Shown here: positions 3,018 to 53,452 of the stretch, piece by piece | Position numbering within the stretch: position 1 is the stretch's first letter | Layout of the letters: each line of letters opens with the position of its first letter | Origin: Thiohalocapsa sp. | Lineage (GTDB): Bacteria > Pseudomonadota > Gammaproteobacteria > Chromatiales > Chromatiaceae | Length of the DNA stretch: 64,000 bases | Assembly (NCBI GenBank): GCA_028277725.1 | Contig: JANQFX010000034.1 | Span: 56,523 to 120,522 of the forward strand | Direction of reading: 5' to 3' | Translations under genes and position numbers: made by a program | The notes under the pieces: generated by a model | Seen by the model: only the letters and a program-made list of their open reading frames with translations | What the model was told of the DNA's origin: nothing | Database searches by the model: none

Positions 3018-3060
3018 GCCCGGGCGGCCGATCGGAGGTCCCACGGGCCTGGTCTGCGCC

Positions 3061-4284: not shown

Positions 4285-4375
4285 GCTCGGGTCCTTCGCA
4301 CTGAATGGAGAGTCGCGACCGCGAGAGCTTAGCACGCTAACTCAGGCGCTCAGGGAGCGACCAATAGAGCCCGCC

Positions 4376-5930
<1,555 letters not shown>

Positions 5931-5934
<4 letters not shown>

Positions 5935-6746
5935 GCGCCGATGCCCTGCAGGAACTCCGCGACTGCAGCGCTGGTCTCTGCGCCATGCGAGAGCCAAGGC
6001 GCGTGCGCGGCACCCGGCAACACGCGGGTCTCGGCCTCCGGCATCAGCAGGTCCAGCCGCTCCGCCGCGGCGGCCGGAACCAGGGTGTCACGCTCGCCGA
6101 ATAGCCAAAGCGTCGGAGCCTGAACATCCGGCAACGGGCCGCGGAGGTCCTCCTCGCGCAGCAGTTCCAGACCCTTGGCCAGGGCCGCGGGGTTCGGCAC
6201 CGGGCGCGTTGCAATGGCCTCTCGCAAGCGGCGCAGCTGGCCCCGCAGGTCGTCGCTGCCGCGGAGCTGGAGGGTGAAAAACCGCTCCAGGGTGCCGGCG
6301 GGGTCCGCCAATAGCCCGTCGTGGAACTGCGCGAGCGTGCCCTCCGGCACCGCCACCTGCCAGTCCACGGCGCGCACGAAGCGCGGCGTCGACGCCAGCA
6401 GCACCAGCGCGGCGACGCGCTTGGGGGCAAGCCGCGCCGCCTGCAGGGCAACCAGCCCGCCGAGGGACCAGCCGACCCAGATTGCCGGTTCCTCCTCGTG
6501 CTCGGGCGTCTGCCGGGAGCTGTGCCCGGCGACCTGCTCCAGACAGGCATTGGCCCAATGATCCAGCGACCACTGATCGTCCGAGAAGGGCGCACCGCCG
6601 TGCCCGGGCAGGTCCACGGCAATGATCTCATGACCCGCCGTCATTGCCTCGGGCAGGCCGGACCAGACGCCGGCGTTCATGCCCCAGCCGTGGACCAGGA
6701 CCATTGGCGGGGCCATCGGTGGGACCGGGGGTTGATTTACGGTCAT
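5931..6746 (-). CDS. bioH: Pimeloyl-ACP methyl ester esterase BioH
   Basis: Alpha/beta hydrolase that removes the methyl ester from pimeloyl-ACP, ending the chain-building stage started by BioC. The start at 6746 overlaps the bioF stop as ATGA; the longer open frame upstream is antisense-like filler inside bioF. The oxyanion segment is VLVHGWGMNAGVW, the nucleophile lies in WVGWSLGGL, the acid in LFGERDTLVP and the histidine in LPGAAHAPWLSH. It has 271 residues. BioH inside the bio operon, rather than unlinked as in E. coli, makes the operon self-sufficient for pimelate formation. Confidence 0.95.
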
Positions 6747-8092: not shown

Positions 8093-8126
8093 CGGCGGTG
8101 GCGGATGCGTTCGCTGGACAGCCGGA

Positions 8127-9230
8127 TCAGCGGGCCTGTTCGACCCGGGGGGATCGCGCGCGGTCGTGGTCGTTGGTGTGGCGGTGGCAGCCGCCTGGCT
8201 CCGCGCGGTCCGGCGCCTCGACGGTCTCGAAGGCGAGGCCGAGCCGCCCAAACAGCGCGCGATCACGGTCGCTGCCGGCGTTGTCCGTGGTCAGCAGCCG
8301 CTCGCCATAAAACACCGAGTTTGCCCCGGCCAGGAAACAGAGCGCCTGCAGCTCGTCGCTCATGTCGTCTCGACCGGCCGACAGGCGGACATAGCTGCCG
8401 GGCATCATGAGGCGGGCGGCGGCGATGGTGCGCACCAGCTCGAACGGGTCCAGGGCGTCGGTGCCGAACAGCGGCGTGCCCTCGATCTGCACCAGCAGGT
8501 TGATGGGCACGGACTCCGGGTGGGCCGGCAGATTGGCCAGCTGGCAGAGCATCGAAGCGCGGTCCCGGCGCCCCTCCCCCATGCCCAGGATGCCGCCGGA
8601 GCAGGTCTTGAGCCCGGCGGCGCGCACATGGTCCAGCGTCTCCAGTCGGTCTTGGTAGGTGCGCGTGCTGATCACCTGGCCGTAGAACTCCGGCGAGGTA
8701 TCCAGGTTGTGGTTGTAGTAGTCCAGTCCAGCGTCGGCGAGGCGCTGGGCCTGGCCGGCGGTGAGCATGCCGAGGGTGACACAGGTCTCCATGCCGAGCG
8801 CCTTGACGCCTTCGACCATGGCCAGGACCCGCTCCAGGTTCTTCTCGGTGGGATTGCGCCAGGCGGCACCCATGCAGAACCGGCTGGAGCCCACCGCGCG
8901 CGCCGCGCGGGCGGCGTCGAGCACCTGGTTCAGCTCCAGCAGGCGCTCGCGCTCCAGCGTCGTCTCGTGGTGGGCGCTCTGGGAGCAGTATCCGCAGTCC
9001 TCCGAGCAGCCACCCGTCTTGATGCTGAGCAGCGTGCTGAGCTGAATGAGGTTTGGGTCGAAACGCGCGCGGTGGCCGCGCTGCGCACTGAACAGCAGGT
9101 CGTTGAACGGCAGATCGAGCAGGGCCTCCGCCTCATCGACGGTCCAGTCGTGTCGTTCCGGGGCGGCGACGACCACGGGCGCCTCGCTTGGCTTGGGGGC
9201 TGCGTGCATGGGGGGTCCGAACTCTGTCAT
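8127..9230 (-). CDS. bioB: Biotin synthase BioB
   Basis: Radical-SAM enzyme that inserts sulfur into dethiobiotin. The [4Fe-4S] CxxxCxxC motif is [13 protein letters not shown] (Cys75, 79, 82). [13 protein letters not shown] and the conserved GGILGMGE loop are also present; RxSAGR (VRLSAGRDD) supplies ligands near the [2Fe-2S] cluster. It has 367 residues, with a His/Arg-rich tail beyond the conserved ANSVFYGE region. It is the first gene of the operon; a BirA-type operator lies just upstream. Confidence 0.97.
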
Positions 9231-10102: not shown

Positions 10103-10265
10103 GATCGTCAAGTACCTACGCAGGACGCAAGACCCCACTGCTCAGCTCGGCCCCGATACTTGACTACAAGCTCTGCGCAGGAGTTCGCCGCCAGAGGCGT
10201 CGCAGCCACCGAGCGTAAGCCGTTGCCAGGGAGCATGCTTGCCAATGCTCTGTGATCCCAGTGAA

Positions 10266-10412
10266 GGGCACCTCGAAATATTCGAGGTGCCCGTGCGGGG
10301 CAGGATGCCCCGCCATTCTTCAAGCGCCCAAGCGCTTGAACAATCGAGCGAAGCGGAAACCGCGTTTTCGCTTCGCGTCTTGAAGAATTGCCAGGACGGC
10401 AATTTTTCAAGA
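10266..10412. repeat. Chain of consecutive short-loop hairpins
   Basis: Successive inverted repeats within 147 bp. 10266-10292: 12-bp arms, loop ATA. 10295-10313: 8-bp arms GCGGGGCA, loop GGA. 10319-10340: 9-bp arms TTCAAGCGC, loop CCAA. About 10348-10373: imperfect arms around AAGCGGAAAC. 10378-10412: 15-bp arms with one G-T mismatch, loop AGGAC. The last has a T-tract in its descending arm (10403-10407) and could end transcription from comF. The order and tightness suggest a structured RNA or a palindromic repetitive element, not chance. Confidence 0.7.
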
Positions 10413-11140
10413 TCCCCTGAAGTCTTGCACCCGGCGGCTGGTGCCGCTCTGGGGCTTCTCGACGAGCTTGTGCAACCAAATGTCCTCGATCATGCGCCAA
10501 CGCCTTACAATTGGCCTATGCTCGATCATCATGGGGTCTGCCTCCGTGCGGGAGGTCGATGGAGTCCTGCAGCTCGAACTCGTAAACGGGATAGATCCAC
10601 CCCAATGCACGATTGGCTCCAACCATGCCGATTCCGCCCGACTGCGATCGCGGTTTAGTTCATTGGCGTTGATGCACCTTGGCCGCGACGCCGGCATACA
10701 GGGGGAATCCGGACACCTGATCCACCAGATCATCGAACGCTTCCCCGCTGGCCAACAGGGTTTGCAGGGTCAACGCCTTGCGACCCGCCCGTGGGGCGTG
10801 CCGCTATCGGGTTGCGATCCCTTCAGCGGCGCAGCCGTGGGCACTGGTGCGGGTATTCCTGTGTTCGCGTCCTATTGCGGTCGACGTTTCGAAAGGGTTC
10901 TGACGATCAATAAGGGGCCTTATCGCATCGCCCCCGTCCAGCTCGCTCCTATGACGATTCAAGGGGGTGCCAACTAGCAACCTCGACAATCCGGTGTGCG
11001 TGATTGGCCTCGCGTAAGGGCCCGTCGTGAACCCGGCGCAGGGATGCCGTCCACGCGCTGGTCACACATGGATCCACCAGGCAGTGGAGCAACCGAAGTT
11101 CTGCGGGCTTCGCCCATGTCGCGTGGCCCGTGAGCAAGGA

Positions 11141-40584: not shown

Positions 40585-42021
40585 ATGGGCCAGGACATCA
40601 CCGACACCGAGTTCACGGCCGCAGACTTCGCGGAGTTCAAGGCGCGGCTGCGCACCGAGACGGACCTGCTGGCGAGCTGGTTCGCCGAGGATTGCTTCGC
40701 CGACACGCCTCGCGAGGCGGGCTTCGAGCTGGAGGCCTGGCTGGTGGACCGTCGCCACCGTGCACCGGCGCCGGTGATCGAGCCGCTGCTCGAGGCCATG
40801 GACGACCCGCTGGTCGTCCCGGAACTGGCGCAATACAACCTGGAGCTCAACGGCACGCCGTTGTTGCTCGGCGGCGACGCGCTGAGCGGCCTCGCCGCGG
40901 AGCTCAAGCGCACCCTCGCACGTGTCCGAGAGGCCGCTTCCGAATTGGAGGCGGACGTCCTCACCTGCGGCATCCTGCCGACACTGCGGGCAGACCACAT
41001 GGTCATGGCGCAGATGACACCCCGCGAGCGCTATCGCGCGCTCAACGAGCAGATCCTGCGCCTGCGCGAGGGCGCACCCATCTGGCTCGAAATCCACGGC
41101 GAACAGCCACTGACGTTCGAGCAGCGCGACGTGATGCTCGAGGCCGCCGCAACCTCGTTCCAGATCCATATCAAGATGTCGGCGGCGGAATCGGCGCGGG
41201 TCTTCAACGCCTCCAAGATCCTGTCCGCGCCCATGGTCGCCATGGCATCGAACTCACCCTTCCTGTTCGGCCGCGAACTCTGGTGCGAGACGCGCATCCC
41301 GTTGTTCGAGCAGGCCGTCTCGGTCGGCGGTAGCCCGCTGCGCGAGCGCGTCAGCTTCGGCATCAACTACGCCTGGGGCACGGTGCTCGATGCGTTCCGT
41401 GCCAACATCCGCCGCTACCCGGTGCTGTTGCCACATCTGATGGATACACCACCGGAACAGCTCGCCCACCTGCGCCTGCACAACGGCACCATCTGGCGCT
41501 GGAATCGACCCCTGATCGGCTTCGACACGCGGCCCGGCCAGACCCCGATTCCGCACCTGCGCCTGGAGCACCGCGTCGCCGCCTCCGGGCCGAGCGTCCT
41601 CGACAATGTCGCCAACGCCGCCTTCTACTTCGGCGCCGTCCATGCCCTGGCAAGGGCCGAGGAGCCGCCGGAGCGGCGCATTCCATTCCCGCAGGCGAGG
41701 GCCAATTTCTATCTCGCCGCCGAATACGGCCTCGACGTCCGCGTCGCCTGGGAGGATCGATCGCGCGTCGCGTTGTCCGAGTTGATTATCGAGCACCTGC
41801 TGCCGCTCGCCCATATCGGCCTTGCGGACCTCGGAGTGGACGCCGTCGAGCGCGAGCACTGGCTCGGCATCGTCGAACAGCGGGTGCGCACCAACCGCAC
41901 CGGTGCCCGTTGGCAGCGCGCCTGGGCCGCACGCTACGGCCGCGACTGGGAGGGCCTCACCGATGCCTACCTGGAACGCCAACTCAGCGGCCGGGCGGTG
42001 CATGAATGGACCCTGACCTGA
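40585..42021 (+). CDS. Glutamate-cysteine ligase-like (GCS2) carboxylate-amine ligase
   Basis: 478-residue member of the GCS2 family of ATP-dependent carboxylate-amine ligases. Visible parts: REAGFELEAWLVD (substrate-binding Glu region), LAQYNLELNGTPLLL, MTPRERYRALNEQI, ATSFQIHIKMS and ASNSPFLFGRELWCETRIPLFEQA. The reaction is probably formation of a gamma-glutamyl peptide bond, possibly gamma-glutamylcysteine, but YbdK-like enzymes of this family have weak activity and the true substrate is uncertain. The downstream M14 gene follows directly and may be coupled. Confidence 0.83.
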   Translation: MGQDITDTEFTAADFAEFKARLRTETDLLASWFAEDCFADTPREAGFELEAWLVDRRHRAPAPVIEPLLEAMDDPLVVPELAQYNLELNGTPLLLGGDALSGLAAELKRTLARVREAASELEADVLTCGILPTLRADHMVMAQMTPRERYRALNEQILRLREGAPIWLEIHGEQPLTFEQRDVMLEAAATSFQIHIKMSAAESARVFNASKILSAPMVAMASNSPFLFGRELWCETRIPLFEQAVSVGGSPLRERVSFGINYAWGTVLDAFRANIRRYPVLLPHLMDTPPEQLAHLRLHNGTIWRWNRPLIGFDTRPGQTPIPHLRLEHRVAASGPSVLDNVANAAFYFGAVHALARAEEPPERRIPFPQARANFYLAAEYGLDVRVAWEDRSRVALSELIIEHLLPLAHIGLADLGVDAVEREHWLGIVEQRVRTNRTGARWQRAWAARYGRDWEGLTDAYLERQLSGRAVHEWTLT

Positions 42022-42113
42022 GGCCCGCAACAAACCAGACCACCCGACACGCTCGTACAGACCAACGCGCCATCATCTCGTACCGAGCCCGCCGAACCCG
42101 AGGAATTCGAGCC

Positions 42114-43220
42114 TTGCCGACCCCCGCCGACCCGACGACTGCCGACCCGAACGCCAGCGACCTCAGCGCCCCGCAATCGGAGCCGACACCATTACACGAG
42201 CTCGATGCGCTGCCCGATGACCTGCTGGACCTGGACGCGGCAGGTCTCGGCCGACTGCTCGACGGCCCGACCCTGATCCACCTGTCCGGCCAGCGCCAAC
42301 CGCCGCTGTTCGTGTCCGTGCTGATGCACGGCAATGAGACCGTCGGCTGGGAGGCGATCCGCTCCGTGCTGCGCGACTACGAGGTCGGCGGCGGCGAGCG
42401 GCCGCTGCCGCGGGATCTGGTCCTGTTCATCGGTAACGTCCGCGCCGCCGCGGCCGGCATGCGCCACCTGCCCGAGCAGCCGGACTTCAACCGCGTCTGG
42501 CCGGGCTCCGAGTTGGCGCACACGCCCATCCATGACGTCATGCAACAGGTGGTGGAGCGTGTCGCCGCCCGCGGTCTGTTCGCGAGCATCGATCTGCACA
42601 ACAACACCGGCATCAACCCCCACTACGCCTGCGTCAACCTCATCGACAACCGCTATCTGCACCTGGCGACCCTGTTCTCCCGGACCGTGGTCTACTTCAC
42701 CCGACCGCGCGGCGTGCAATCGCAGGCCATGGCGGCACTGTGCCCGGCCGTGACGGTGGAGTGCGGCAAGGTGAAGGACCGGCTCGGCGTGGAGCACGCG
42801 CGGGAGTTCATCGACGCCTGCCTGCACCTGTCGCAGATCCCGGACACACCGGTGCCGGAGCACGATATCGACATCTTCCACACGGTGGCGCGCATTCGCG
42901 TCCCCGACAACGTCGACTTCGCCTTCCCGCCGGCCACCGCTCCGCTGGTGCTCTCGCCGACCTTGGAGCACCTGAACTTCCGCGAGCTATCGCCGGGCAC
43001 TGCCTTCGGCAACTGCGGCGATGCACGCCCGCCGCTGGACGTCCGCGACGAGTGGGGCCGGGACGTCGCCCGGCGCTACTTCGTCTGCGAGGACGGCGAG
43101 CTGCGGCTGAGACTGCCGGTGATGCCGTCCATGCTCACCTGCGACGCCGAAGTCATCCGCCAGGACTGCGTCGGCTACTTGCTGGAGCGCTACGACCGGC
43201 ATCTGCCGCGGCGGAGTTGA
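42114..43220 (+). CDS. Succinylglutamate desuccinylase/aspartoacylase-family (M14) zinc hydrolase
   Basis: Zinc carboxypeptidase-fold amidohydrolase. Zinc ligands are suggested by VLMHGNETVGWEAI (His and Glu of HxxE) and SIDLHNNTGINP (second His), with the catalytic Glu probably in AVTVECGK. About 368 residues from the TTG at 42114, which has AGGA nine bases upstream. An ATG at 42006 inside the GCS2 gene is possible but adds 36 poorly protein-like residues. Substrate unknown. The last 90 bp are the intact member of a direct-repeat pair whose decayed copy lies 8.9 kb downstream. Confidence 0.85.
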   Translation: MPTPADPTTADPNASDLSAPQSEPTPLHELDALPDDLLDLDAAGLGRLLDGPTLIHLSGQRQPPLFVSVLMHGNETVGWEAIRSVLRDYEVGGGERPLPRDLVLFIGNVRAAAAGMRHLPEQPDFNRVWPGSELAHTPIHDVMQQVVERVAARGLFASIDLHNNTGINPHYACVNLIDNRYLHLATLFSRTVVYFTRPRGVQSQAMAALCPAVTVECGKVKDRLGVEHAREFIDACLHLSQIPDTPVPEHDIDIFHTVARIRVPDNVDFAFPPATAPLVLSPTLEHLNFRELSPGTAFGNCGDARPPLDVRDEWGRDVARRYFVCEDGELRLRLPVMPSMLTCDAEVIRQDCVGYLLERYDRHLPRRS

Positions 43221-43226
43221 TGGCGT
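43134..43226 (+). repeat. Direct repeat copy 1 (3' end of the M14 gene), possible attachment-type site
   Basis: The last ~87 coding bases plus a few bases past the stop of the aspartoacylase-family gene recur at 52050-52142. In the first 57 ungapped positions I count five mismatches; homology continues with one single-base gap to the shared TTGATGGCGT. This copy encodes the intact C-terminus (LTCDAEVIRQDCVGYLLER). Confidence 0.85.
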
Positions 43227-43249
43227 AGGAAGCAGGCTGATGTGCGAGA

Positions 43250-43417
43250 GTTATACCCGTCGCGCATGGGTTTTCGGGAAAGCGAGGTGCGCTCCTCGTG
43301 CCTGAGAGCAAGGCACGCCGACGAGTCATAGCCTCACTATGACGAGGAGGCGTAACGCAGCGCTCGGGTGCGAGGGGCGTGCATCGCGACCGAAAACCTG
43401 TGTGTGACGGGTATAAC
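43250..43417. repeat. 168-bp element with 28-bp terminal inverted repeats (MITE-like)
   Basis: Left end GTTATACCCGTC-N7-GGTTTTCGG (43250-43277), right end CCGAAAACC-N7-GACGGGTATAAC (43390-43417): 12 + 9 perfectly complementary bases interrupted by seven. The interior has smaller hairpins, for example CGTGCCT...AGGCACG and GTCATAG-CCTCA-CTATGAC. It encodes nothing and ends two bases before a truncated SMR start codon. It may be a miniature inverted-repeat transposable element or a cruciform-forming RNA element. Confidence 0.7.
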
Positions 43418-43419
43418 AC

Positions 43420-43467
43420 ATGGCCTGGGTGTACCTGATCATCGCCGGGATCTTCGAGTGGGGCTGG
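43420..43467 (+). pseudogene. N-terminal stub of an SMR-type (SugE/Gdx-like) exporter
   Basis: Sixteen codons, MAWVYLIIAGIFEWGW, match the first transmembrane segment of SugE/Gdx small-multidrug-resistance proteins, including the essential Glu (E13). After this the frame continues into unrelated sequence and stops 13 codons later. Only the 5' end of the gene survives. Confidence 0.7.
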
Positions 43468-43740
43468 CCTGGTTCGGCGGGCTGCTGCTGGCGGGCTGTG
43501 CTTCGGCGCCGCTGAATCGCACCGAGCTGATGCCGGTGCCGGGCATATTCGAGAGCGGTCGGTTCGACCCTGTTGCGGATCGACCGCCGGAGGCCCGGCT
43601 TCTTAGAGACCGAGATTCTGTTTGCCACCGACCGCGATCCCGCGCAGGCCGGCGACCTGGAGCGGCACTATGCGAGTCGCCGCGGCTACTCTGTGCGTCT
43701 CGGCCGCACGCGTATCCTGCATGACAGCTGTCCTGAGCCC
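43458..43740 (+). pseudogene. Frameshifted, truncated lipoprotein of DUF900/esterase type
   Basis: Beginning at a GTG inside the SMR stub, one frame reads VGLAWFGGLLLAGCASAPLNR (lipoprotein signal), then LMPVPGIFESGRFDPVADRPPEARLL. At about 43605 a single extra base shifts the reading; the next frame continues sensibly as ETEILFATDRDPAQAG and RRGYSVRLGRTRI. The joined sequence resembles the N-terminus of DUF900-type alpha/beta hydrolase lipoproteins (LMPTP...LPPE...YATDR pattern). No catalytic domain follows, so it is a 5' remnant with a frameshift. Confidence 0.65.
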
Positions 43741-43770
43741 TTCTCGTATCGACCGAGGCACGGGGGGCCG

Positions 43771-43791
43771 ATGAAGCGAGTGGCGCTTCAT
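43771..43791. promoter_or_regulatory. Inverted repeat upstream of mscS
   Basis: ATGAAGCG-AGTGG-CGCTTCAT, perfect 8-bp arms with a 5-base loop, 64 bp before the mscS start. It could be an operator or a terminator stem for the upstream remnant (no T-tract follows). Confidence 0.4.
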
Positions 43792-43854
43792 TCGTGCCGG
43801 TGCCCGGGTGATTCGGCGCCGTTCTTTCTGACGTAGCACCAAGAGAGAGACACC

Positions 43855-45546
43855 ATGCGCAGAGAACAGTCAGCGACAGAAGAACGTTGCCGCCGCTCGA
43901 TCAACACCGCGCTGGCGCTCGTGTTGTCCATCGCCTGTCCATGGACCGCCGCCGCTGATGCCGCCGAGCGCCCGGTCGAGGCGGTGCCGGTTGCGGCTTC
44001 CCAGGTCACCGTGGAACTGGCGGAGGTCGTCGTGGACGGTCACCTGGTCATGAAGGTGCGCGGCACGGCCTCGTATCCCGCGGCACGACGGGCCCGGTTG
44101 ATCACCCGGAACATCGTCGCGGCGGCCCGAGACGAGAACTTCGCCGATGACGATCTCACCCTCCGTGTCGATGGCGAGCGCACGCTGCTGCTGGCCGGCG
44201 AGCGCGTGCTGCACGAGATCTATGACGCCGATGCACAGATCGAGGGCCTGACCCGGGAGGTGCTGGCGGCGGATATCCAATACCGGGTGCAGGAGGTGAT
44301 CACGGCCTATCGCCACGACCGAGAGCCCGAGGTGCTGCTGGAGAAGACCGGCTACGCGCTGGCGACGGTGATGCTGGCGGCGACGTTGATCTTCGGCTTC
44401 GCGAAGGCGTTTCGGCTCTTGGCAGATCTGCTGGATCGACGGTTGCAGACGCAGATCCGGACCTTGGAGCAGAGGTCTGCACGGCTGCTGCGCTCGCGTA
44501 ACCTGACCCGGGGGCTGCGAGCGCTGACCAAGGCCGTGTTTCTCGCGCTGGTAGCCCTGACCCTGTACCTGAGTACGCAGTTCGTGCTCGGCCTCTTTCC
44601 CTGGACGCGCCGTTTCGCCGATTGGCTGTTCGGCCTGATCTTGAGTCCGCTGCAAGAGATCGGTCGCGGAGTGCTGGGCGCCATCCCGGACCTCATGTGG
44701 CTGATCATCCTGTTCTTCATCACCCGCTACCTGCTCGGGACTATTCGCGCCTTCTTCCGCGGCGTCGAGAACGGGTCGGTGAAACTCGCGTCTCTCGAAC
44801 GGGACCTGGCCCTGCCGACCTACCGCATCGTTCGGCTGGTGGTGATTCTGTTCGCCATTGTCATGGCCTATCCCCACATCCCCGGTTCCGACTCGGCCGC
44901 GTTTCAGGGGCTTTCGGTGCTGGTGGGGCTGATCATCTCGCTGGGCTCGCAGTCCATTATCGGCAACATCATCGCCGGCTACAGCCTACTGTACCGCCGT
45001 CCGTTCAAGATCGGCGACCGCATCAGAATCGCCGACACCGTGGGCAGTGTCACGGAGCTGCGGGTGTTGACCACGCGGTTGCAGTCGCTGAAGAACGAGG
45101 AGATCGTCATCCCGAATACCATGGTCCTGAACGAAGAGGTCATCAATTACTCAGCGCGTGCGCGCGAACAAGGGCTGATCCTGCATACGACGGTCGGCAT
45201 CGGCTACGAGACACCCTGGCGGCAAGTGGAGGCCATGCTGAAGGAGGCTGCGGAGCGGACCGGCGGGCTGCTCAAGCAGCCGAAGCCCTTCGTGTTGCAG
45301 CATGCGCTCGGCGACTTTGCAGTGACCTACGAGATCAACGCCCACTGCAACGACGCCAACAATATGGCGCAGATCTACTCCGCGCTGCACCGCAACATCC
45401 TGGACGTGTTCAACGAGTACGGCGTGGCCATCATGACGCCGTCCTACATCGCGGACCCGCCGGAGCCGAAGCTGGTGCCGAAGGAGCAGTGGTATGCGGC
45501 ACCGGCCAAGGCGTCGGAAGCCGCCGACACCACTCCGCGGCGTTGA
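43855..45546 (+). CDS. MscS-family mechanosensitive channel with periplasmic N-terminal domain
   Basis: 563 residues. A signal peptide (INTALALVLSIACPWTAAADA) is followed by a periplasmic domain (about 45-160). Several membrane segments follow (about 165-185, 220-245, 275-300, 325-345), then the pore helix and MscS signature GLIISLGSQSIIGNIIAGYSLLYRRPFKIGDRI. The beta domain contains TRLQSLKNEEIVIPN, followed by the C-terminal cage domain. Likely role: release of solutes on hypo-osmotic shock. It has a purine-rich ribosome site (AAGAGAGAG). It is the best-preserved gene of the 43-52 kb segment. Confidence 0.9.
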   Translation: MRREQSATEERCRRSINTALALVLSIACPWTAAADAAERPVEAVPVAASQVTVELAEVVVDGHLVMKVRGTASYPAARRARLITRNIVAAARDENFADDDLTLRVDGERTLLLAGERVLHEIYDADAQIEGLTREVLAADIQYRVQEVITAYRHDREPEVLLEKTGYALATVMLAATLIFGFAKAFRLLADLLDRRLQTQIRTLEQRSARLLRSRNLTRGLRALTKAVFLALVALTLYLSTQFVLGLFPWTRRFADWLFGLILSPLQEIGRGVLGAIPDLMWLIILFFITRYLLGTIRAFFRGVENGSVKLASLERDLALPTYRIVRLVVILFAIVMAYPHIPGSDSAAFQGLSVLVGLIISLGSQSIIGNIIAGYSLLYRRPFKIGDRIRIADTVGSVTELRVLTTRLQSLKNEEIVIPNTMVLNEEVINYSARAREQGLILHTTVGIGYETPWRQVEAMLKEAAERTGGLLKQPKPFVLQHALGDFAVTYEINAHCNDANNMAQIYSALHRNILDVFNEYGVAIMTPSYIADPPEPKLVPKEQWYAAPAKASEAADTTPRR

Positions 45547-45552
45547 ACCTGC

Positions 45553-45800
45553 TCAATACTCCAACTCGAAGGCGGCGCCCGCGCCGACGTCGCCTGCGCC
45601 CACGTCGCTCTCGAAGCGGACCTGCGGGGCGAGTCTCGGGCCGAAGACGGCGCGCGGGTCACCGCCCTCCAGACCCTGACGCGCGCCCAGGTGTAAGCGC
45701 TCGCCGAGGGCGCGCCCGCCCTCCAACGTCGTCCCACCCCACCGGTCGCTGTCGACTTGGAGCCGATCCAGGCCGAGACCGACGCGCAACGAGATCCGGC
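45553..45800 (-). pseudogene. C-terminal remnant of TamB-like protein
   Basis: On the minus strand one frame reads GRISLRVGLGLDRLQVDSD, then GGRALGERLHLGARQGLEGG and PQVRFESDVGAGDVGAGAAF, ending FELEY and stop. This pattern (hydrophobic beta strands, SDVGAG-like repeats, terminal aromatic) is that of the extreme C-terminus of TamB/DUF490 proteins. It starts abruptly in the middle of a TamA-like frame (next entry). Its stop lies 7 bp from the convergent mscS stop. Confidence 0.6.
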
Positions 45801-46075
45801 CGGTCCACCTCGATGTCGATGGCCGCGTCGCAGTAACCGAAACCGCACAGCACGTCGTCCAGGCGCAGGCGGTCGGCCTCGGCGCGCATAATCAGCGCGA
45901 TGGGAAGAACGGGCTCGTTGCCGAGCGCGACGAGCATGGATGCGCTCAACAGAGCGGCATCGATCGGTGCATCACCCAAGGGCTCCAGCTCCACCGCGTA
46001 GCCGAATCCGCTGGTCTGCGAGCGGCCGGGCTGCGCCAGACACAGGTACAGCATCAGCAATGCCGGGAGCATCAT
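45800..46075 (-). pseudogene. N-terminal remnant of TamA-like POTRA protein
   Basis: From an ATG at 46075 the minus strand encodes a signal peptide (MMLPALLMLYLCLAQPGRSQ) and a POTRA-like domain: GFGYAVELEPLGDAPIDAAL, then IMRAEADRLRLDDVLCGFGYCDAAIDIEVD. The RAEAD...L...GYxDA pattern is that of the first POTRA domain of TamA/Omp85-type assembly proteins. The frame runs on as low-complexity Arg-rich residues to 45659, with no barrel. TamA precedes TamB in normal operons, so an internal deletion joined the start of tamA to the end of tamB. Confidence 0.6.
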
Positions 46076-46626
46076 CGGACGGATCACCGGGCGGTCCGCG
46101 GGCGGAGAGAACGGCTCGGCGCGGCATTGGAGGCATCGGACCGCCCTCGTCACCGAGCGCCTGGCCCATGTCTTCCAGAGATCCGCCGCCGATGCTGCTA
46201 GGTCCATGGCGTACCGAGCAAGGGGCGGCTTGTTTGTCGGGAGTGTAGCCAAGGTCCTGCCCTCGCCTGCATTGGCACAGAGGGCGGCCGCGAGGTGCCT
46301 GAGCAACCGGACGGCAGCTCGCCGCGGACCTAAGGCCGCCGAAATCGCCCAGGGAACTCAGGAGCTAGGCGACCGAGCCGAGGTGCGACCAGACCGCAAG
46401 GCCCGTTGCGGCATCGGCGCCGGGCCATCGACTGCTGAGTTTCTCTTCATCGCGGCACAGTCACCCGGCCGCGGTCCGGCGTCGGCCTTGTCATGAGTCC
46501 CGAGATCAGTCTTGCTGCCCCCCGGTAGGAGCAATCGGCCGCTGCCGCCTTCGTGCAATACGACAACGATGAGGCCAAACTTGACTCGTCTGCAAGCATT
46601 TGGCGCCTCACCGCCGCCCACGGAGA
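46076..46626. other. Gene-free stretch between the tamA remnant and the AraC gene
   Basis: 551 bp with no open frame that looks like protein and no recognised RNA. It should contain the promoter of the AraC-type gene and formerly that of tamA. Confidence 0.45.
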
Positions 46627-47688
46627 ATGCAACACTTGGTCAGCCCAACCGGAACTCCAGAAGCAAAGACGCCGTTCCACTTCACCCGCGTCGATTATCG
46701 GTGGTTACTCAACGGCGAGTTCGAAGAGGCCAGCTTTTCTCCCGACAATGGTCATACGCGACAGCCTTACCCCATTGCACCGGAACTCGGCGAGGGTTGG
46801 TTGGAGCTCTTGCCTCTCGGGTTGGGAATGACGCTGTACCGTGGCGTACATCGGTTCAAGAAACGGGCATTCGGTCATCTTGTGACAGTGTTGGAGGCTG
46901 AGGTCCGCTACGACTCCCCAAGCTTCGCGGCCGTCGTTGCGTTCGGCAGCAAGATCTGTCATGCAGAGCAGTGTCCGCGCGCGGAGCTCATCTTCGGCCC
47001 CGGGACGGCGCTGTTCCGCCATACCGATTGGTTGAAGGTCGTCGCCAAGGTCGATGCGTCGGCGAACAGCGAGATCGTCGGCCTGACGCTGAGCGATGAA
47101 CAACTCGGCTTGCTGTTGGGGGAAGCCGAGAGCGCGTCCCTAAAACGAACGCTGAGGGTAGACGCGCTGCCGAGCGTCGCGGTGCACCGCCTGCCGCCGC
47201 GCCATGCTGAACAACTGCGAGCGGCCATCAGTCCACAGACGACGGGGACACTGCGGATACTCCAGGCCCAAGCCAAGGCCGTCGGCTTCCTCGCCACCCT
47301 GGGCACCGATTTCGGTTCCGGCGCATCGTCCTGGGAGCATCGGACCGCGGCGCCGGCCCGAGTGCGAGAGATCCATGACCGTTTGTCGACACTGGAGGGC
47401 AAGTTGCCAAGCCTGGACAGCTTGGCGCGGGACGCTGGCCTCTCGGCACGGCAACTCAACGCACTATTCGCGGCCGAGTACGGGGCGCCGATCCATAGCT
47501 TCATCACCGCGCAACGCCTGCATCAAGCGCGTGCAGCCGTCTGCGATAGCGATATCCCACTCAAGGTGTTGGCGGCACGCCTCGGCTACTCCCACGTCAA
47601 CCACTTCATCACCGCCTTTCGCCGCATGTTCGGCTACACACCCGGTTCTCTGCGACGCGGTCCCGGCAGGAACCCTGAATCGCCCTGA
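46627..47688 (+). CDS. AraC-family transcriptional regulator
   Basis: About 353 residues. The N-terminal half (about 30-220) is an effector/cupin-like domain without close recognition. The C-terminal half is a double helix-turn-helix AraC domain: LARDAGLSARQLNALFAAEYG, then IPLKVLAARLGYSHVNHFITAFRRMFGYTPGSLRR (second HTH and signature). The start is uncertain (ATG 46627, or TTG 46600); neither has an ideal ribosome site. Base composition looks less GC-rich than the flanking core genes, in keeping with acquisition. Target unknown; the PEP-CTERM gene is next. Confidence 0.88.
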   Translation: MQHLVSPTGTPEAKTPFHFTRVDYRWLLNGEFEEASFSPDNGHTRQPYPIAPELGEGWLELLPLGLGMTLYRGVHRFKKRAFGHLVTVLEAEVRYDSPSFAAVVAFGSKICHAEQCPRAELIFGPGTALFRHTDWLKVVAKVDASANSEIVGLTLSDEQLGLLLGEAESASLKRTLRVDALPSVAVHRLPPRHAEQLRAAISPQTTGTLRILQAQAKAVGFLATLGTDFGSGASSWEHRTAAPARVREIHDRLSTLEGKLPSLDSLARDAGLSARQLNALFAAEYGAPIHSFITAQRLHQARAAVCDSDIPLKVLAARLGYSHVNHFITAFRRMFGYTPGSLRRGPGRNPESP

Positions 47689-47962
47689 TCGCCGATCCGT
47701 ATCCCGCGCTTCCGTCGCGCGTAGAGATGCGTCGCTCTGGCGTAGAACAAGTCGCTCGAACACGCCGAGCCCCTCGCGGACAATTCGGTGGTGCCGAGAT
47801 TCTCCAAAGCCCATCGCGTCACGCTCAAGAATGACGGCCCGTCGAGTGCAAGACCCGATGGGTCCGATGTCATGACTCCAAGGCAGCTACGGGTCGCGAG
47901 GTTTCGGGGAAGGCTCGTCCGAGAGCAGCCCTCCATCTCATGCCAGCTACAAGAGGTTCCCC

Positions 47963-48634
47963 ATGCCCACATTTGCTTTCCACACCCGCACCAAGTCCCG
48001 ACGCGTCGCGGGCACGATCATGTTGCTCCTGACCGGATTGCTTGGATCGTTTTCGACGCAAGCCGCATTGGTGACTTACACCCTTTCAGGTATCAACATG
48101 AACGGCTCCCTAGACGGAGTCTCATTCTCCAACGCCAGTTGGTCCATCACCGGCGAGGGCGACACGGCGAATGTGCAAGCGATTTCCCAGGGCGGGATTT
48201 CTGGTCTGTCGAACTTTCTTGCACCCACCATCACGATTGCCGACGCCTCCAACGACTGGTCCGTTCAATTATTGGATACAGTCGACTCAGCGTGGGGCGT
48301 TGCTTCGTTCGACTTAAACTCGATTGGGCAGGACGTCTCCTACAGCAATTTTGCGCTTGTGAATACGTCGACTTTTGAGGGACCGGGCTTCATTAGCGCC
48401 GTCGTCCCCGCGAACGCCAGTGACCTTGTGACCCCCGTGCTACTCAACGGGTTTAGCTTGCAGTCGACGGGAACCTTCGCTACCTCGGGCGGGGATTTGG
48501 TGATCGACGAAGATCAGGGCGCTTCGCCGTCGACCTTTCAAGTGGTCGCTTCGGTGCCGTTGCCCGGAACCCTTGCACTGCTTGCGTTGGGCATGATCTG
48601 GATCGGTCGCGAGCGGCGACGTCGTGTCTCTTAA
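47963..48634 (+). CDS. PEP-CTERM-type exported protein
   Basis: 223 residues: a signal peptide (AGTIMLLLTGLLGSFSTQAA) and a Ser/Asn/Gly-rich beta-type body (SFSNASWSITGEGD, TIADASNDWSVQLLD). The C-terminal sorting signal is VPLPGTLALLALGMIWIG followed by RERRRR, i.e. the VPxP motif, hydrophobic stretch and basic end of PEP-CTERM proteins recognised by exosortase. The VPLPGT spelling is a common variant of VPEPxT. Ribosome site AGAGG is 7 bases before the ATG. Exosortase is not in the window. Base use is more AT-rich than the neighbours, suggesting transfer. Confidence 0.82.
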   Translation: MPTFAFHTRTKSRRVAGTIMLLLTGLLGSFSTQAALVTYTLSGINMNGSLDGVSFSNASWSITGEGDTANVQAISQGGISGLSNFLAPTITIADASNDWSVQLLDTVDSAWGVASFDLNSIGQDVSYSNFALVNTSTFEGPGFISAVVPANASDLVTPVLLNGFSLQSTGTFATSGGDLVIDEDQGASPSTFQVVASVPLPGTLALLALGMIWIGRERRRRVS

Positions 48635-48841
48635 GATCCGCTGGGGATAGCCTCGATGTTTGCCAAGCCTGCCGGTGTGAACAGACTGGCATGCATGCGT
48701 CGTCAGCGACCACTTGCTCATCTTCAGCATCAACCTTGCATCGTACACCTTGGCGCTGCCACACAAGGCCATCATCCCCGCAGACGTCTGACTTCGATTG
48801 TGACGTCGGACGGATTGCAATCGCGAGGACACGGTGGCTAG

Positions 48842-49195
48842 GTTGCGGATGCCGGCCGGCTCGCCTGCTACGACCGCCTCAGCGGACGCGCACCGACACC
48901 GCCCGTTGCGCGCGCACCGGCCATCGACCCCGCACCTGCCGCTGCCGTCGCCATGAGCGCGCCGGCCGCGGAAGACCCGGCGCCGGCTCCAGCACCCGGC
49001 CTCGACTTCGGCGCGGACACGTCCATGCTCAGCCGCGCCTGGAGCTTCGATCCGGACAGCGAGCCCTAGCTGATCAAGTTCTACCGGCCCAACTCTCTCA
49101 GCCCCGTCCGCTGGCAGAGTTGCACGAACGACCGCCCCTTCACGCCGCTGCTCGAAGCCACCAGCGTCTACGACGGCAAACTGGACAAGAAGGCT
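48842..49195 (+). pseudogene. pldA (outer-membrane phospholipase A) N-terminal remnant
   Basis: One frame reads ADAGRLACYDRLSGRAPTPP, an Ala/Pro-rich linker, then TSMLSRAWSFDPDSEP, a TAG stop (49067-49069), and onward LIKFYRPNSLSPVRWQS with LEATSVYDGKLDKKAES. ACYDRL, LSRxWxFD, YRPNSLSPVR and LDKKAES(K) are the successive landmarks of the PldA N-terminal region before its barrel. The start is missing (a stop lies at 48839), there is an in-frame stop, and the barrel is gone; the frame stays open to 49468 with unrelated residues. A clear relic. Confidence 0.7.
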
Positions 49196-49548
49196 GAATC
49201 CTCTGCCATTGCGCTGGTGGAGGTGCATGCGCCGGAACAACTGGTGGTCATTCGTCGAGCCGGAGAGCTATTGGAGGCACCGGGGGTGCTGCGCAATCCC
49301 GTCCCGGTGCAGGCCCTATACGATCCGCAAGCCGCGAATGCCGCGACGCTGCGTAACCTAGTGAACAGCCCAACGCACTCGCCGGCGGCCCTCACCGACA
49401 GCCACCTAGGTTGGGCCTCCGACTTCGGCCCAGCCCATGCGAAGCCTTTCACAATGCGGCCGGGATAGAACGGTTGCGCCACCCAGGTTCATCATGGCAG
49501 CCACCCGGCGGGACGCATCCGGACAAGCGCCAAACCGCCCCTTCCAGG

Positions 49549-49968
49549 CTACAGCGGCCTGATCGCCACCTTGCGGAACTTGATCACTCCTGTCGCGTGT
49601 TGCAGCGTCAGGGGCCCTTCCGTGTAGGTGTCGTCCGTCAGCTCCACGGTCTTCTCGCCGTTCAGAAGGAAGATGCCGCTGTTCGCGTCATCGCTCGCCC
49701 AGAACTCGGCGTACACCTCGACGTCCTTGTAGCTGGCCTTAGTGCGAAGGTGCGCCGGGGTCTCGCTGCTGCGTTCATCCGCAACGATGGCCCCGTCCTC
49801 AACGCGCCAGTTGCTTTCTCCAACCTGCTCCCACTCACTGCCGATGGTCTCGCCATCGAACAGCGATTGCCATCCAGACCCGGACGGCTCCACTGCCCAG
49901 GACGGAAATCCAATGACGGTGGCGATAGAGAACAGCGAGGGGGCAAGGATACGGAGCTGTTTGGACAT
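49549..49968 (-). CDS. DUF1080 (3-keto-disaccharide hydrolase-like) protein with internal deletion
   Basis: 139 residues from the ATG at 49968, with a signal peptide (LAPSLFSIATVIGFPSWAVE). The N-terminal DUF1080 part is recognisable: GWQSLFDGETIGSEWEQVG, WRVEDGAIVADE, and VEVYAEFWASDDANSGIF. The sequence then passes directly to LLNGEKTVELTDDTYTEGPLTLQHATGVIKFRKVAI, the normal family end. The roughly 70-80 central residues (the YEVQI-to-NxxEI strands of the lectin-like sandwich) are missing, so the fold is probably broken although the frame is intact. Confidence 0.65.
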   Translation of the reverse strand: MSKQLRILAPSLFSIATVIGFPSWAVEPSGSGWQSLFDGETIGSEWEQVGESNWRVEDGAIVADERSSETPAHLRTKASYKDVEVYAEFWASDDANSGIFLLNGEKTVELTDDTYTEGPLTLQHATGVIKFRKVAIRPL

Positions 49969-50265
49969 GACTTGTACCTGGTTTGCTTCCGGGGGACCGA
50001 TGCGTGCTGATGCGTCAAGTTGGTCATCCTTGTGGTTGTCGAGCACCGCCCGCCCAGAATCAAACCTAGATGGAGTCGTCGGACGGTCGTCAGGGTGCGT
50101 CCTGCAGGGTGCTGAGCAAGGCACGACGAGGCGGAGTCGCCATCTAGGTTGGAGCACACTCTGAACCCCAACACTGTGCAACCGGCGTGGTTGAATATGC
50201 CTCGCCGCATGCTCGCATCAACCCTGCTCGCCACCACACGCTGACCCCGGAGCACCCAGAGGAAC

Positions 50266-50586
50266 ATGGAACCCCTGCTGATCTTCACCTCCATCACCGT
50301 CTTCATGCTGATGTTCAAGATTGGCATCAACCGCAGTCCATCGGAGCTACTCAGCCTATGGCAGCATCCGGGGCGCGTCGCCGGCTCACTACTGGCGGTG
50401 CTGGTCATGGTTCCGGCGGTGTTTCTGGCAGTCGTCTGGCTGTTTGCCTTGCCCACCGAGGCCGCTGTCGCCCTGGCACTCTTGGCCGCGGCGCCGGGCG
50501 CGCCGCTGACCACCAAGCGCTCGGAAATCGCTGCCGCCGATCCGGAGTATGTCAGCAGCCTACAGCTGTCCTTGACCCGTTCTTGA
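50266..50586 (+). pseudogene. Truncated bile-acid-symporter-type (BASS) carrier
   Basis: 106 residues with ribosome site AGAGGA. The sequence MEPLLIFTSITVFMLMFKIG, then LAVLVMVPAVFLAVVWLFAL and ALLAAAPGAPLTTKRSE, ending SLQLSLTRS, matches the first three helices of BASS-family transporters. It stops after the APGAPLTTKR loop and SLQLSL, where a full carrier would continue for another ~200 residues. A downstream scrap in another frame (about 50740-50830, LHIEVTADGKIELEALPAP then stop) looks like the tail of some other gene. Confidence 0.65.
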
Positions 50587-50874
50587 TCCGGCCCAAGTCG
50601 ACTTCTGATAGCCTAAGGGCGGGTCAAGCGCGCCTGCAATGCTCGTAGACGAAGAAACGACGACTCCAATGCCCAGGTTGAACGCGCGACCAGCAGTCCT
50701 TGTGCCGATTCGAAGGAGCCGCAGCGAGTAGATTCTTAACGGGCTCGATGCAACGAGTGAAGCTATCGGACTGCATATAGAGGTGACCGCTGACGGGAAG
50801 ATCGAGCTGGAAGCGCTGCCTGCCCCCTGACGATCAAGGCAGCGCGCCCCCCGATATCGTTGACAGGAGACGAC

Positions 50875-51930
50875 ATGACCCGAATGATGCCCATCCAGAT
50901 CGTCGCGGCACTGGCATGGATATCGACCGTTCCGGTCCAGGCCGAGGTCGCGCACGAGCAAGCCGTCGCGTCTCTGGAGCAGACGCTCGTGGAACTCGCG
51001 GCGGAGGGCATCGGCACCGTACTGACCGCGGTCGCCGACAGCACGCGTGCCCTGGGCGAGACCTATCGGCGGTTGGCCACGGCCGAAACCGAGCGGCCAC
51101 CGGGCAGCCCCGAGCGCTGGCTGGAATCACGCTCGACCCTCGGCAACACCACCGGGGTGAGAACCTGGCCCGACGACATCGACGCGCCCCCAGCCTTTCA
51201 GGCGCCGTATCCCGCCTTCTACAGCTACTCGGGTGACCAGTTGAGCGAGTCGGTCCTGCGGGAATTCGACCTGTTCGAACGGTTGGCTCCGACGTTGCGC
51301 GGCGACTACGAGAGCTTTCCCTTCTCCTGGGTCTACTTGACGACCAGTGACAACGCCATGGCGATCTACCCCTACGTGCCGATTGAGGAAGCGGTCAACA
51401 ACGGCACGCCCACCGAGACCGAGTTCTATCAGGCCGCGGACGTCGAGAACGGACGGGTCGGTTGGACCAGGCCATACCTGGATCTGGTCGGCGCCGGCAT
51501 GATGGTGACGGCCTCCTACCCCATCCAAGACGGCAACCGACTGCTCGGGGTCGCCTCCCGCGACATCACGTTGAAGCAGCTGACCCGGTCCGTCCTGTCC
51601 CGCCTTGGGCGCGATGGCAGCATTGCATTGATGGTCGACGAAAAGGGGCTTGCGATCGATGCCAGCGACCCTGCGTTGGCGGCCGAAATCGAAGACGTCA
51701 ACACCAAGGCACGGGCGGCGGTCCTCTACTACCGAACCGCCGAGGGCCTGCAAGGCGCCGGCGGCGATCAGGCCGTTGCGTCGGCCCACGGCAGGATCAA
51801 TGCCCTGGTCGAGGCGACGCTCGCCAAGGTCGGGACTGCCGACCACGCGCCCGTCGAGGTCGATGGTGAGCGGACACTCGCTGCGCACATCGGGAATACG
51901 GGGTGGGTGCTCGTGCTGGTTCACCCCTGA
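50875..51930 (+). CDS. Periplasmic double-Cache sensor domain protein without signalling domain
   Basis: 351 residues. A signal peptide (IQIVAALAWISTVPVQAE) follows the ATG at 50875 (AGGAG five bases upstream). The body is a dCache-type ligand-binding domain: a long N-terminal helix, then FPFSWVYLTTSDNAMAIYPY, VGWTRPYLDLVGAGMMVTASYPI, LLGVASRDITLKQL and a membrane-distal second lobe ending NTGWVLVLVHP. The protein ends exactly where chemoreceptors and kinases have their second transmembrane helix, and no HAMP, kinase or MCP domain follows in any frame. It is either a solute-binding partner protein or the sensor half of a truncated receptor. Confidence 0.75.
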   Translation: MTRMMPIQIVAALAWISTVPVQAEVAHEQAVASLEQTLVELAAEGIGTVLTAVADSTRALGETYRRLATAETERPPGSPERWLESRSTLGNTTGVRTWPDDIDAPPAFQAPYPAFYSYSGDQLSESVLREFDLFERLAPTLRGDYESFPFSWVYLTTSDNAMAIYPYVPIEEAVNNGTPTETEFYQAADVENGRVGWTRPYLDLVGAGMMVTASYPIQDGNRLLGVASRDITLKQLTRSVLSRLGRDGSIALMVDEKGLAIDASDPALAAEIEDVNTKARAAVLYYRTAEGLQGAGGDQAVASAHGRINALVEATLAKVGTADHAPVEVDGERTLAAHIGNTGWVLVLVHP

Positions 51931-52049
51931 GCGACCGAACCTACCTGCCAACCCACAGGGCGTCCAGTCAGGCCCGGCCAGCACTTGATGTGAGATGGAT
52001 GTCGACCTGGGCGTCCCGGTGATGCTCTGAACGGGGCGATGTGTCACGG

Positions 52050-52142
52050 CTCACCCGCGACGCCGAAGTGATCCGCCAGGACCGCGTCGGCTAGTCGCTG
52101 GAGCGCCAGGACGGCACCTTCCGCGGCGGGATTGATGGCGTT
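52050..52142 (+). repeat. Direct repeat copy 2 (decayed 3' end of the M14 gene)
   Basis: Imperfect copy of 43134-43226. Read in the same frame it gives LTRDAEVIRQDRVG, a TAG (52092-52094), then SLERQD, so it is no longer coding. It ends at the stop codon of the convergent VanZ-like gene. Faint similarity may extend upstream (CCCGGTGATGC near 52016). Confidence 0.85.
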
Positions 52143-52509
52143 AAGATGCGACACGCGCCCGCCAGGCGCGCAGCAGCAGTGCCCTTCCAGCGACATAGAA
52201 GCCCAAGCCGACGGCGTCGGCCAGCAGGTCGAGGGCGGAACCCTCCCGATGCGGCAAGAGCGACTGGACCAGCTCCAGGACGAGCCCGTAGGCCAACAGC
52301 AGGATCAGACGCCGGGGCAGCGCCACCCGACCGGGCCAGCCCAAATCCGCGAGCAACGCCAGTACCAGGAAGGCCGCGACGTGATTGGCCTTGTCCCAGC
52401 CGAGACCCGGGGGATCGGGCTGTGGCGTCAGGGCCAGATAGGTAATGGCCAGCAGGGAGAGCCAGAGCCCCGCCCGCGCCGCCTGTTTGACCGGCCGGTT
52501 CAGCCCCAT
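52141..52509 (-). CDS. VanZ-like membrane protein
   Basis: 122 residues with four hydrophobic segments. Typical VanZ-family features: LTPQPDPPGLGWDKANHVAAFLVLA (the DKxxHxxAF motif), LVLELVQSLLPHREGSALDLLADAVG (the E-Q...R..D..D motif). The start at 52509 overlaps the upstream YqaA-like gene by 10 bases. Function in these short bacterial homologues is unknown. Its stop codon lies at the border of direct-repeat copy 2. Confidence 0.85.
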   Translation of the reverse strand: MGLNRPVKQAARAGLWLSLLAITYLALTPQPDPPGLGWDKANHVAAFLVLALLADLGWPGRVALPRRLILLLAYGLVLELVQSLLPHREGSALDLLADAVGLGFYVAGRALLLRAWRARVAS

Positions 52510-52937
52510 TGCGTCGCGCCCATGTCGTAGAACCACAAGAACACCGCATAGCGCGCGCCCTTGCCCAGCCCCGAGAGCAGCGTCACCAACCAGAACGGCG
52601 CCCGCATCAGGCCCGCGACGAAGGTGAGCGGATCGCCCACCAGGGGTAACCACGACAAGAGCAGCGTCCAGATGCCCCAGCGGCCGTACCAGGCGCTTGC
52701 CTTGCCGAGTTGGTCCGGCTTGAAGGGGAACCAGGGTCGATCCTGCCAGTGCAGCAGCCAGCGGCCGAGCGCCCAGTTGACCAACCCCCCCAAGGTGTTG
52801 CCGAGGGTGCCCCACAGCCAGAGCGGCCAGGGATCGTAGCCTGCGGCGCACAGGGCGAAGAGCGCCACTGCGGAACCCATGGGTAGCAGGGTCGCGGACA
52901 GGAAAGCGGTGACGAAGAGGCCAAGGTAGCTTTCCAC
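52500..52937 (-). CDS. YqaA-family inner-membrane protein (DedA-like)
   Basis: 145 residues with several membrane helices. The YqaA/SNARE-associated DedA-like pattern is visible: FLSATLLPMGSAVALFAL, WGTLGNTLGGLVNWALGRWL, WGIWTLLLSWLPLVGDPLTFVAGLMR and LGKGARYAVFLW. Related proteins have been linked to lipid handling at the membrane, but no function is known for this subfamily. Coupled to the VanZ-like gene. Confidence 0.88.
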   Translation of the reverse strand: MESYLGLFVTAFLSATLLPMGSAVALFALCAAGYDPWPLWLWGTLGNTLGGLVNWALGRWLLHWQDRPWFPFKPDQLGKASAWYGRWGIWTLLLSWLPLVGDPLTFVAGLMRAPFWLVTLLSGLGKGARYAVFLWFYDMGATQWG

Positions 52938-53080: not shown

Positions 53081-53452
53081 TCAGGATAGATCCGCGGCGT
53101 GACGTTTCAGGTCGGCGAGGGCGCAGACCTCGAGCGCCTTCTCGTGGGTTGAGCGCAGCATCACCCGTGGTGCGCAGCCGGCCTCGAAGGCCTGGCGCCA
53201 GCGGGCGGCACACAGGCACCAGCAGTCGCCGGGTTTCAGGCCGGGAAAGTCGAACTCCGGCACGGGTGTGATCAGATCGTTGCCCTGCTCACGCGAGTAC
53301 TCCAGAAACTCCTTGGTGACGCGGGCGCAGACGGTGTGGGAGCCCAGGTCCTGCGGGCCCGTCTCGCAACTGCCGCTCCGGGTGAAGCCGGTGCGCGGGG
53401 AGTCCGAGCAGGGTTCCAACGGCTCGCCCAGTACGTTATTGCCTTTCGACAC
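53081..53452 (-). CDS. DUF2237 family protein
   Basis: 123-residue cytosolic protein matching DUF2237: KGNNVLGEPLEPCSDSPRTGF, DLGSHTVCARVTKEFLEYSREQGNDL, then FPGLKPGDCWCLCAARWRQAFEAGCAPRV. The conserved cysteines and the CWCLCA motif might bind metal or be redox active, but nothing is established. It stands alone between the YqaA-like and MFS genes. Confidence 0.85.
   Translation of the reverse strand: MSKGNNVLGEPLEPCSDSPRTGFTRSGSCETGPQDLGSHTVCARVTKEFLEYSREQGNDLITPVPEFDFPGLKPGDCWCLCAARWRQAFEAGCAPRVMLRSTHEKALEVCALADLKRHAADLS

What the first reader, a model, noticed from the sequence alone, without database searches (positions are those of the whole stretch)
43134..52142. 8.9-kb segment bounded by direct repeats of a gene's 3' end: possible decayed island
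The last ~90 bp of the M14 hydrolase gene (43134-43226) reappear at 52050-52142, with five mismatches in the first 57 ungapped positions and shared bases past the stop. The downstream copy has an in-frame TAG and abuts the VanZ-like stop codon. This is what insertion into the 3' end of a gene leaves: the element supplies a fresh gene end, and the displaced original end drifts. Everything between looks foreign or broken. No integrase remains, so an old tandem duplication of the M14 gene is the main alternative.
Basis: partly seen in the sequence, partly recalled or inferred. Interest (0 to 1): 0.85.

Follow-up and report, generated by a model that had tools for sequence, protein, structure and literature searches.

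The report
Scrap-gene block lodged at gene's end
In this bacterium, very likely a purple sulfur bacterium, an 8.8-kb block of intact and broken genes separates two genes that lie side by side in six related genomes, and a 94-bp copy of the first gene's end stands on each side of it; the block likely entered as a mobile element that then lost its integration enzyme, which would make it an ordinary if well-preserved scar of an old insertion.

Summary
Bases 43133-43226, the 3' end of an AstE/AspA-type (M14) hydrolase gene plus 6 bp, recur at 52049-52141: 87% over 94 columns, the only direct repeat of that class in the window. In 6 of 8 congeners that carry the gene it is directly convergent with a VanZ-like gene, and a seventh keeps a VanZ scrap; none has the block there or a second close gene copy. 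The right copy still abuts VanZ and carries the decay (in-frame TAG, frameshift), so it is the displaced end. Whole-gene duplication is not supported.

The "foreign island" part is only partly supported. No tyrosine or serine recombinase was found on the contig, no phage cargo in ten frames, no attP carrier, and no second copy of the gene end (to 3 mismatches) in 157 matching family genomes. Inside are four intact-looking frames (MscS-like, AraC, PEP-CTERM-like, Cache) and scraps (SMR, DUF900, TamB, PLA1, Uma2, SBF); TamB-PLA1 is native to the genus but sits elsewhere in relatives. I favour an old integrase-type insertion that lost its enzyme; relocation of chromosomal DNA is the live rival. 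The genome also holds a textbook tRNA-Lys island with a 90-bp repeat.

The parts
42006..43220 (+). intact M14-type hydrolase gene (AstE_AspA_cat, PF24827), whose 3' end is repeated
   Evidence: followed by a VanZ-like gene in relatives
43133..43226 (+). left copy of the direct repeat: M14 3' end, stop codon and 6 bp
43227..52048 (.). 8.8-kb block absent from this junction in the congeners read
43250..43417 (.). 168-bp palindromic repeat (MITE-like), 23 bp after the left repeat, with other copies in the genome
43421..43469 (+). first ~17 codons of an SMR-type transporter gene (family name from recall), truncated
   Evidence: 88% DNA and 94% protein identity to a 108-aa frame in G004
43482..43722 (+). 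frameshifted scrap of a DUF900 alpha/beta-hydrolase gene
   Evidence: 69% then 88% identity in two frames to a 465-aa G005 frame with PF05990
43855..45546 (+). intact-looking MscS-type mechanosensitive channel gene, 563 aa
   Evidence: among nine congeners a 75% match only in G004
45552..46002 (-). TamB scraps: C-terminal piece and N-terminal piece, middle missing
   Evidence: G009 frame of 1589 aa with PF04357
46600..47688 (+). AraC-type regulator, 362 aa, lying between the TamB and PLA1 scraps
47963..48634 (+). PEP-CTERM-like protein, 223 aa (below the Pfam and NCBIfam cut-offs)
48848..49216 (+). scrap of a phospholipase A1 (PLA1) gene with in-frame TAG at 49067
   Evidence: 53% over 123 aa to a G002 frame with PF02253; the scrap itself has no Pfam match
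49217..49366 (+). scrap of a Uma2-family gene
   Evidence: 80% over 50 aa to a 308-aa G002 frame with PF05685; the scrap itself has no Pfam match
49549..50181 (-). 3-keto-disaccharide hydrolase-domain frame, 210 aa, domain matched in two stretches
50060..50153 (.). palindromic dispersed repeat (overlaps the start of the frame above)
50266..50586 (+). truncated SBF-family transporter, 106 aa, about half of the domain
50860..51930 (+). Cache/PDC sensor-domain protein, 356 aa
52049..52141 (+). right copy of the repeat: displaced, decaying M14 3' end; may begin near 52004
52141..52518 (-). VanZ-like gene whose stop codon the right copy abuts
   Evidence: PF04892, below cut-off
52500..52937 (-). 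VTT-domain gene, next gene of the ancestral order

Best explanation
An 8.8-kb block sits in the M14-VanZ junction of this genome and is missing from that junction in its relatives; it most likely arrived by one integrase-type insertion into the 3' end of the M14 gene, after which the recombinase gene was likely lost and gene scrap likely piled up. Shown: the junction without the block in relatives, the repeat, the intact left gene, and the decayed right copy still touching VanZ. Inferred: that crossover took place within the M14 3' end, that the entering DNA supplied the working gene end (or an identical one), and that TamB-PLA1 and other native genes were moved in during or after the event. 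Insertion itself I hold at about 0.93; the integrase-type mechanism has the figure below.
For: Empty junction: of 9 congeners examined, 8 carry a close M14. In 6 of those 8 (G001, G002, G003, G005, G008, G009) the next frame is a convergent VanZ-like one, with stops from 86 bp overlapping to 171 bp apart; two VanZ frames, the window's and G009's, were put to Pfam, the other five rest on sequence likeness. G004 keeps a VanZ scrap (by eye), and G006 has other DNA. Polarity: of 13 columns that differ between the copies in the MAFFT alignment (12 by BLAST), the right copy's state occurs in 0 of 8 relatives at 7, and its changes include a stop and a one-base deletion. Geometry: the left gene is whole and the repeat ends 6 bp past its stop, as expected of a gene-end att site (inference). 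Positive control: the same genome has a tRNA-Lys island with an integrase beside the tRNA and a perfect 90-bp repeat 7.6 kb apart, 43 bp of it past the tRNA end. Precedent: e14 in icd leaves a 163-bp duplicated gene end (PMC6379469, passages).
Against: No PF00589 match on contig C21 among the 11 of this genome, and the one PF00239 match lies elsewhere. Of ten frames of the block only the AraC one matched PHROGs. The M14 end does not look like a reused site: 157 of 210 family genomes match a 3-mismatch pattern of it and no row shows more than one match; 79 of 80 family loci have at least 200 b downstream and hold there no match to the gene end longer than 21 nt (short ones in 4 loci). No attP carrier in viral contigs (exact patterns), phages or plasmids. 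Both copies share two bases seen in none of 8 relatives and the 6 bases past the stop, so the end did not come from a distant donor. TamB-PLA1 is native and displaced. At 43215 the right copy matches 6 of 8 relatives and the left 1; at 43202 it is 4 against 3.
Confidence: 0.52

Rival explanations
1. Chromosomal relocation without an integrase: a segment of the cell's own genome, including TamB-PLA1, was copied or moved into the M14-VanZ junction by duplication and deletion, leaving a 94-bp duplication of the junction.
For: TamB and PLA1 lie together beside other genes in G002, G008 and G009, whereas in this genome DNA matching those neighbours is on contigs C85 and C69, where the stretches read hold no TamB or PLA1 match. 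Both repeat copies share lineage-only bases and the 6 bp past the stop. No recombinase on the contig.
Against: No second copy of MscS (the other 3 matches in this genome are distant) or of the Cache gene in this genome, and the second-best match of the block to its own genome is an 84-base dispersed repeat (which scored only 2 candidates per genome); the genome is 83.7% complete. The neat end of the repeat just past the stop codon is a coincidence under this reading. The two flanks stay syntenic.
Confidence: 0.3
2. Transposition that makes long target duplications, as reported for IS1549 and IS1634 (8 to 514 bp).
For: The length of the repeat fits the published range (PMC2266710, passages). 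A member of the genus is very rich in transposons (PMC9296519, passages).
Against: No transposase family among the frames scanned (not every short frame was scanned). No terminal inverted repeats of the block seen by eye.
Confidence: 0.06
3. Assembly chimera at the 168-bp MITE, which joins the M14 side to unrelated DNA.
For: The genome is a draft in 121 contigs. Contigs C79 and C82 begin and end inside a MITE copy that is 98% identical.
Against: Three MITE differences within 91 bp separate the copies and could be phased by reads of ordinary length (inference, no reads seen). The right junction has its own decayed M14 end next to VanZ, which a chimera at the MITE does not explain.
Confidence: 0.08
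4. Old tandem duplication of the whole M14 gene with loss of most of the second copy.
For: The right copy may extend upstream.
Against: No congener has two close M14 genes; second hits in congeners are at most 31% identical. The block is not a copy of DNA upstream of M14: no other direct repeat of this class in the window.
Confidence: 0.04

Closest known systems
e14 prophage in E. coli icd
   Same: insertion into the 3' end of a protein-coding gene; gene end duplicated (163 bp), displaced copy left as pseudo icd' (PMC6379469, passages)
   Different: e14 is a prophage; here no phage or integrase gene was found, and the displaced copy has decayed (stop, frameshift)
tRNA-Lys island on contig C38 of the same genome
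   Same: similar size (7.6 kb) and repeat (90 bp) reaching past the gene end
   Different: perfect repeat and integrase present
Islands in or near gene ends such as SGI1 in trmE and Tn5253 with its 83-bp attB (both from abstracts in a search listing)
   Same: insertion at a fixed gene-linked site; SGI1 at a gene's 3' end, Tn5253 with a site of similar length
   Different: those are elements with a known integration site used in many hosts; cargo and enzyme here are absent
Decayed, integrase-less att-flanked elements (CIME-like; recalled)
   Same: att-like repeats without a recombinase between them
   Different: content here includes native chromosomal genes found elsewhere in relatives

Membership tests
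integrative element in a gene's 3' end | direct repeats of the gene end flank the element | tested here: met
integrative element in a gene's 3' end | empty site in relatives | tested here: met
   6 of 8 congeners with the gene
integrative element in a gene's 3' end | target gene left whole, displaced end beyond the element | tested here: met
integrative element in a gene's 3' end | recombinase gene within the element | tested here: not met
   no PF00589 or PF00239 match at E <= 0.001 on contig C21
integrative element in a gene's 3' end | same site used by other elements | tested here: not met
   the pattern allows 3 mismatches, so copies as decayed as this one are missed (it gives 1 match in the window's own genome)
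integrative element in a gene's 3' end | mobile-element cargo | tested here: not met
   ten frames against PHROGs, only AraC matched; others against Pfam
integrative element in a gene's 3' end | excision to a circle | not testable with these tools
   needs cells or reads
IS1634-type transposon with long target repeats | transposase and terminal inverted repeats | tested here: not met
   no transposase family in the frames scanned; not every short frame was scanned; ends judged by eye
tandem gene duplication | second full or ancestral gene copy | tested here: not met

The most novel reading that the evidence does not exclude
The block is not a dead mobile island at all: the cell moved a piece of its own chromosome (TamB-PLA1 with neighbours) into a gene junction without any recombinase of its own, duplicating about 94-140 bp of target, a relocation mechanism that leaves island-like scars.
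Probability: 0.2. Interest if true: 0.5.

Novelty: new member of a known kind. Interest (0 to 1): 0.3.

Why it matters
Scars of this form are usually read as old islands. Here the empty junction, the polarity of decay and a fresh island in the same genome can all be seen, so it is a clean test case for how far repeat-flanked segments may be called islands when no enzyme remains and part of the cargo is native.

Tried and rejected
Dispersed-repeat reading: a search of the window's own genome with 43100-43430 found the 94-bp end at its two places only, unlike the 168-bp MITE in the same query (40 of 58 candidates were scored). Whole-gene duplication: not borne out. Rfam family in 36000-60000 or tRNA in the window as a target: none. 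Plasmid origin of the block: no near match. attP carriers: none. MITE target duplication as a mark of recombination: the copies read show no clear target duplication, so it said nothing. Low GC as a sign of foreign origin: only a mild dip, 59-69% inside against 64-70% in the flanks, not decisive. Integrases near M14 in the 80 family loci: integrase-like matches downstream of M14 in L103 (3.4 kb) and L144 (3.1 kb), no tRNA there and no copy of the gene end; not followed further. Papers: searches (Thiohalocapsa with genomic island, 3 papers listed; 12 of 80 listed) showed no report of this locus; that is the extent of the search.
Full report
What was checked. The window is contig C21:56523-120522 of an 83.7%-complete draft genome of 121 contigs. 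The repeat is as described: 94 columns, 87% identical, E 3.7e-25, far beyond shuffles. It covers the last codons of M14, the stop and 6 bp. A sample of 20 further stretches of 20 kb from the same genome plus the window (464 kb) gave three direct repeats of this class: this one, a dispersed 153-bp element, and a perfect 90-bp repeat of a tRNA-Lys end with an integrase beside the tRNA.

Empty junction. The M14 gene was sought in 56 genomes, the window's included; 42 had a match. Of the 9 congeners 8 have a close one, and G007 has only a 33% match. I read the DNA after the gene in all 8. A convergent VanZ-like frame follows directly in 6, with the two stops between 86 bp overlapping and 171 bp apart. 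In G004 a scrap of it remains before the next window gene (by eye), and in G006 other DNA follows. In G001 the contig ends about 0.6 kb after M14, beyond the VanZ frame. In four of the eight (G002, G003, G005, G008) the VTT gene and the next window gene (53081-53452) come in the same order. The flanks of the block are therefore collinear with relatives that lack it: this is an insertion, not a breakpoint between two distant regions.

Which copy is which. The right copy touches the VanZ stop codon, the place of the M14 end in relatives. Of 13 differing columns (MAFFT), the right copy's base is in none of 8 relatives at seven, and its changes include TAC to TAG and a one-base deletion. At two columns, 43202 and 43215, the right copy agrees with more relatives than the left does, so the left copy has changed too, or was supplied. 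Both copies share two bases seen in none of the 8 relatives, and the 6 bases past the stop. The two ends thus come from this lineage, not from a distant donor. That fits an element long resident in this species as well as duplication in place; the tRNA-Lys island of the same genome shows that an att repeat can run 43 bp past the gene end. The right copy may begin near 52004: profile tests lean that way (0 of 300, 18 of 2000, 1 of 139), a pairwise test does not.

What lies between. Pfam and blastx show an MscS-type channel, an AraC regulator, a PEP-CTERM-like protein and a Cache protein as long open frames, and scraps of SMR, DUF900, TamB, PLA1, Uma2 and SBF genes. A DNA search of 210 family genomes, which scored at most the best few candidates in each, found 73 with a match and none, besides the window's own, with the whole block; pieces match different places. 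TamB and PLA1 lie together in G002, G008 and G009 with 0.6 to 0.9 kb between the matched pieces against 2.9 to 3.0 kb here, where AraC and the PEP-CTERM-like gene stand between them. DNA matching their usual neighbours (a glycine-zipper-like and a dctA-like gene; names from recall) is present in the window's genome on contigs C85 and C69, and the stretches read there hold no TamB or PLA1 match. So part of the block is native DNA in another place than in relatives, and broken. Among nine congeners MscS has a 75% relative in one (G004) and Cache a 50% relative in one (G006).

Mechanism. For an integrase-type event speak the place at a gene end, the whole left gene, the repeat that stops 6 bp past the stop codon, and the living example in the same genome. 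Against it speak the lack of a PF00589 or PF00239 recombinase on the contig, of phage cargo in ten frames, of attP carriers and of reuse of the site. Duplication and deletion would explain the native cargo but makes the neat repeat end a coincidence. I put the integrase-type reading at 0.52 and relocation at 0.30. An assembly chimera at the MITE is possible, but it leaves the decayed M14 end beside VanZ unexplained.

Known kind. e14 in icd is the nearest precedent (163-bp duplicated end, PMC6379469, passages). A member of the genus is known for transposon load and structural variation (Thiohalocapsa sp. PB-PSB1; PMC9296519, passages). The finding is a good example of a known kind of scar. It fails three membership tests for an intact integrative element, so I file it as a likely remnant that works like one, not as a proven member.

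Noticed in passing
G000:C38 (L266) 415-8150: Intact-looking 7.6-kb island in the tRNA-Lys(ctt) gene of the same genome: integrase beside the tRNA, perfect 90-bp repeat, an 865-aa frame without a Pfam match and small frames.
   Followed up: partly
window 43250-43417: 168-bp palindromic MITE-like element with six further places in the genome plus one weak partial match; two of the six are partial copies at the ends of contigs C79 and C82.
   Followed up: partly
window 10265-10417: A copy of a 153-bp dispersed repeat that also stands, cut, at the first bases of four of the contigs sampled (C15, C58, C63, C69); likely a cause of assembly breaks.
   Followed up: no
window 50060-50153: Palindromic repeat shared with other family genomes and with contig C10 of this genome.
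   Followed up: no
window 45552-46002 and L220 8009-8342: TamB matches are reduced to its two ends both here and in G002, with the middle missing, while G009 has a 1589-aa open frame and G008 keeps about 5 kb between the two ends.
   Followed up: partly
L103 8178-9221 and L144 6777-7289: Integrase-like matches 3.1 to 3.4 kb downstream of the M14 gene in two family genomes, without a copy of the gene end or a tRNA there.
   Followed up: partly
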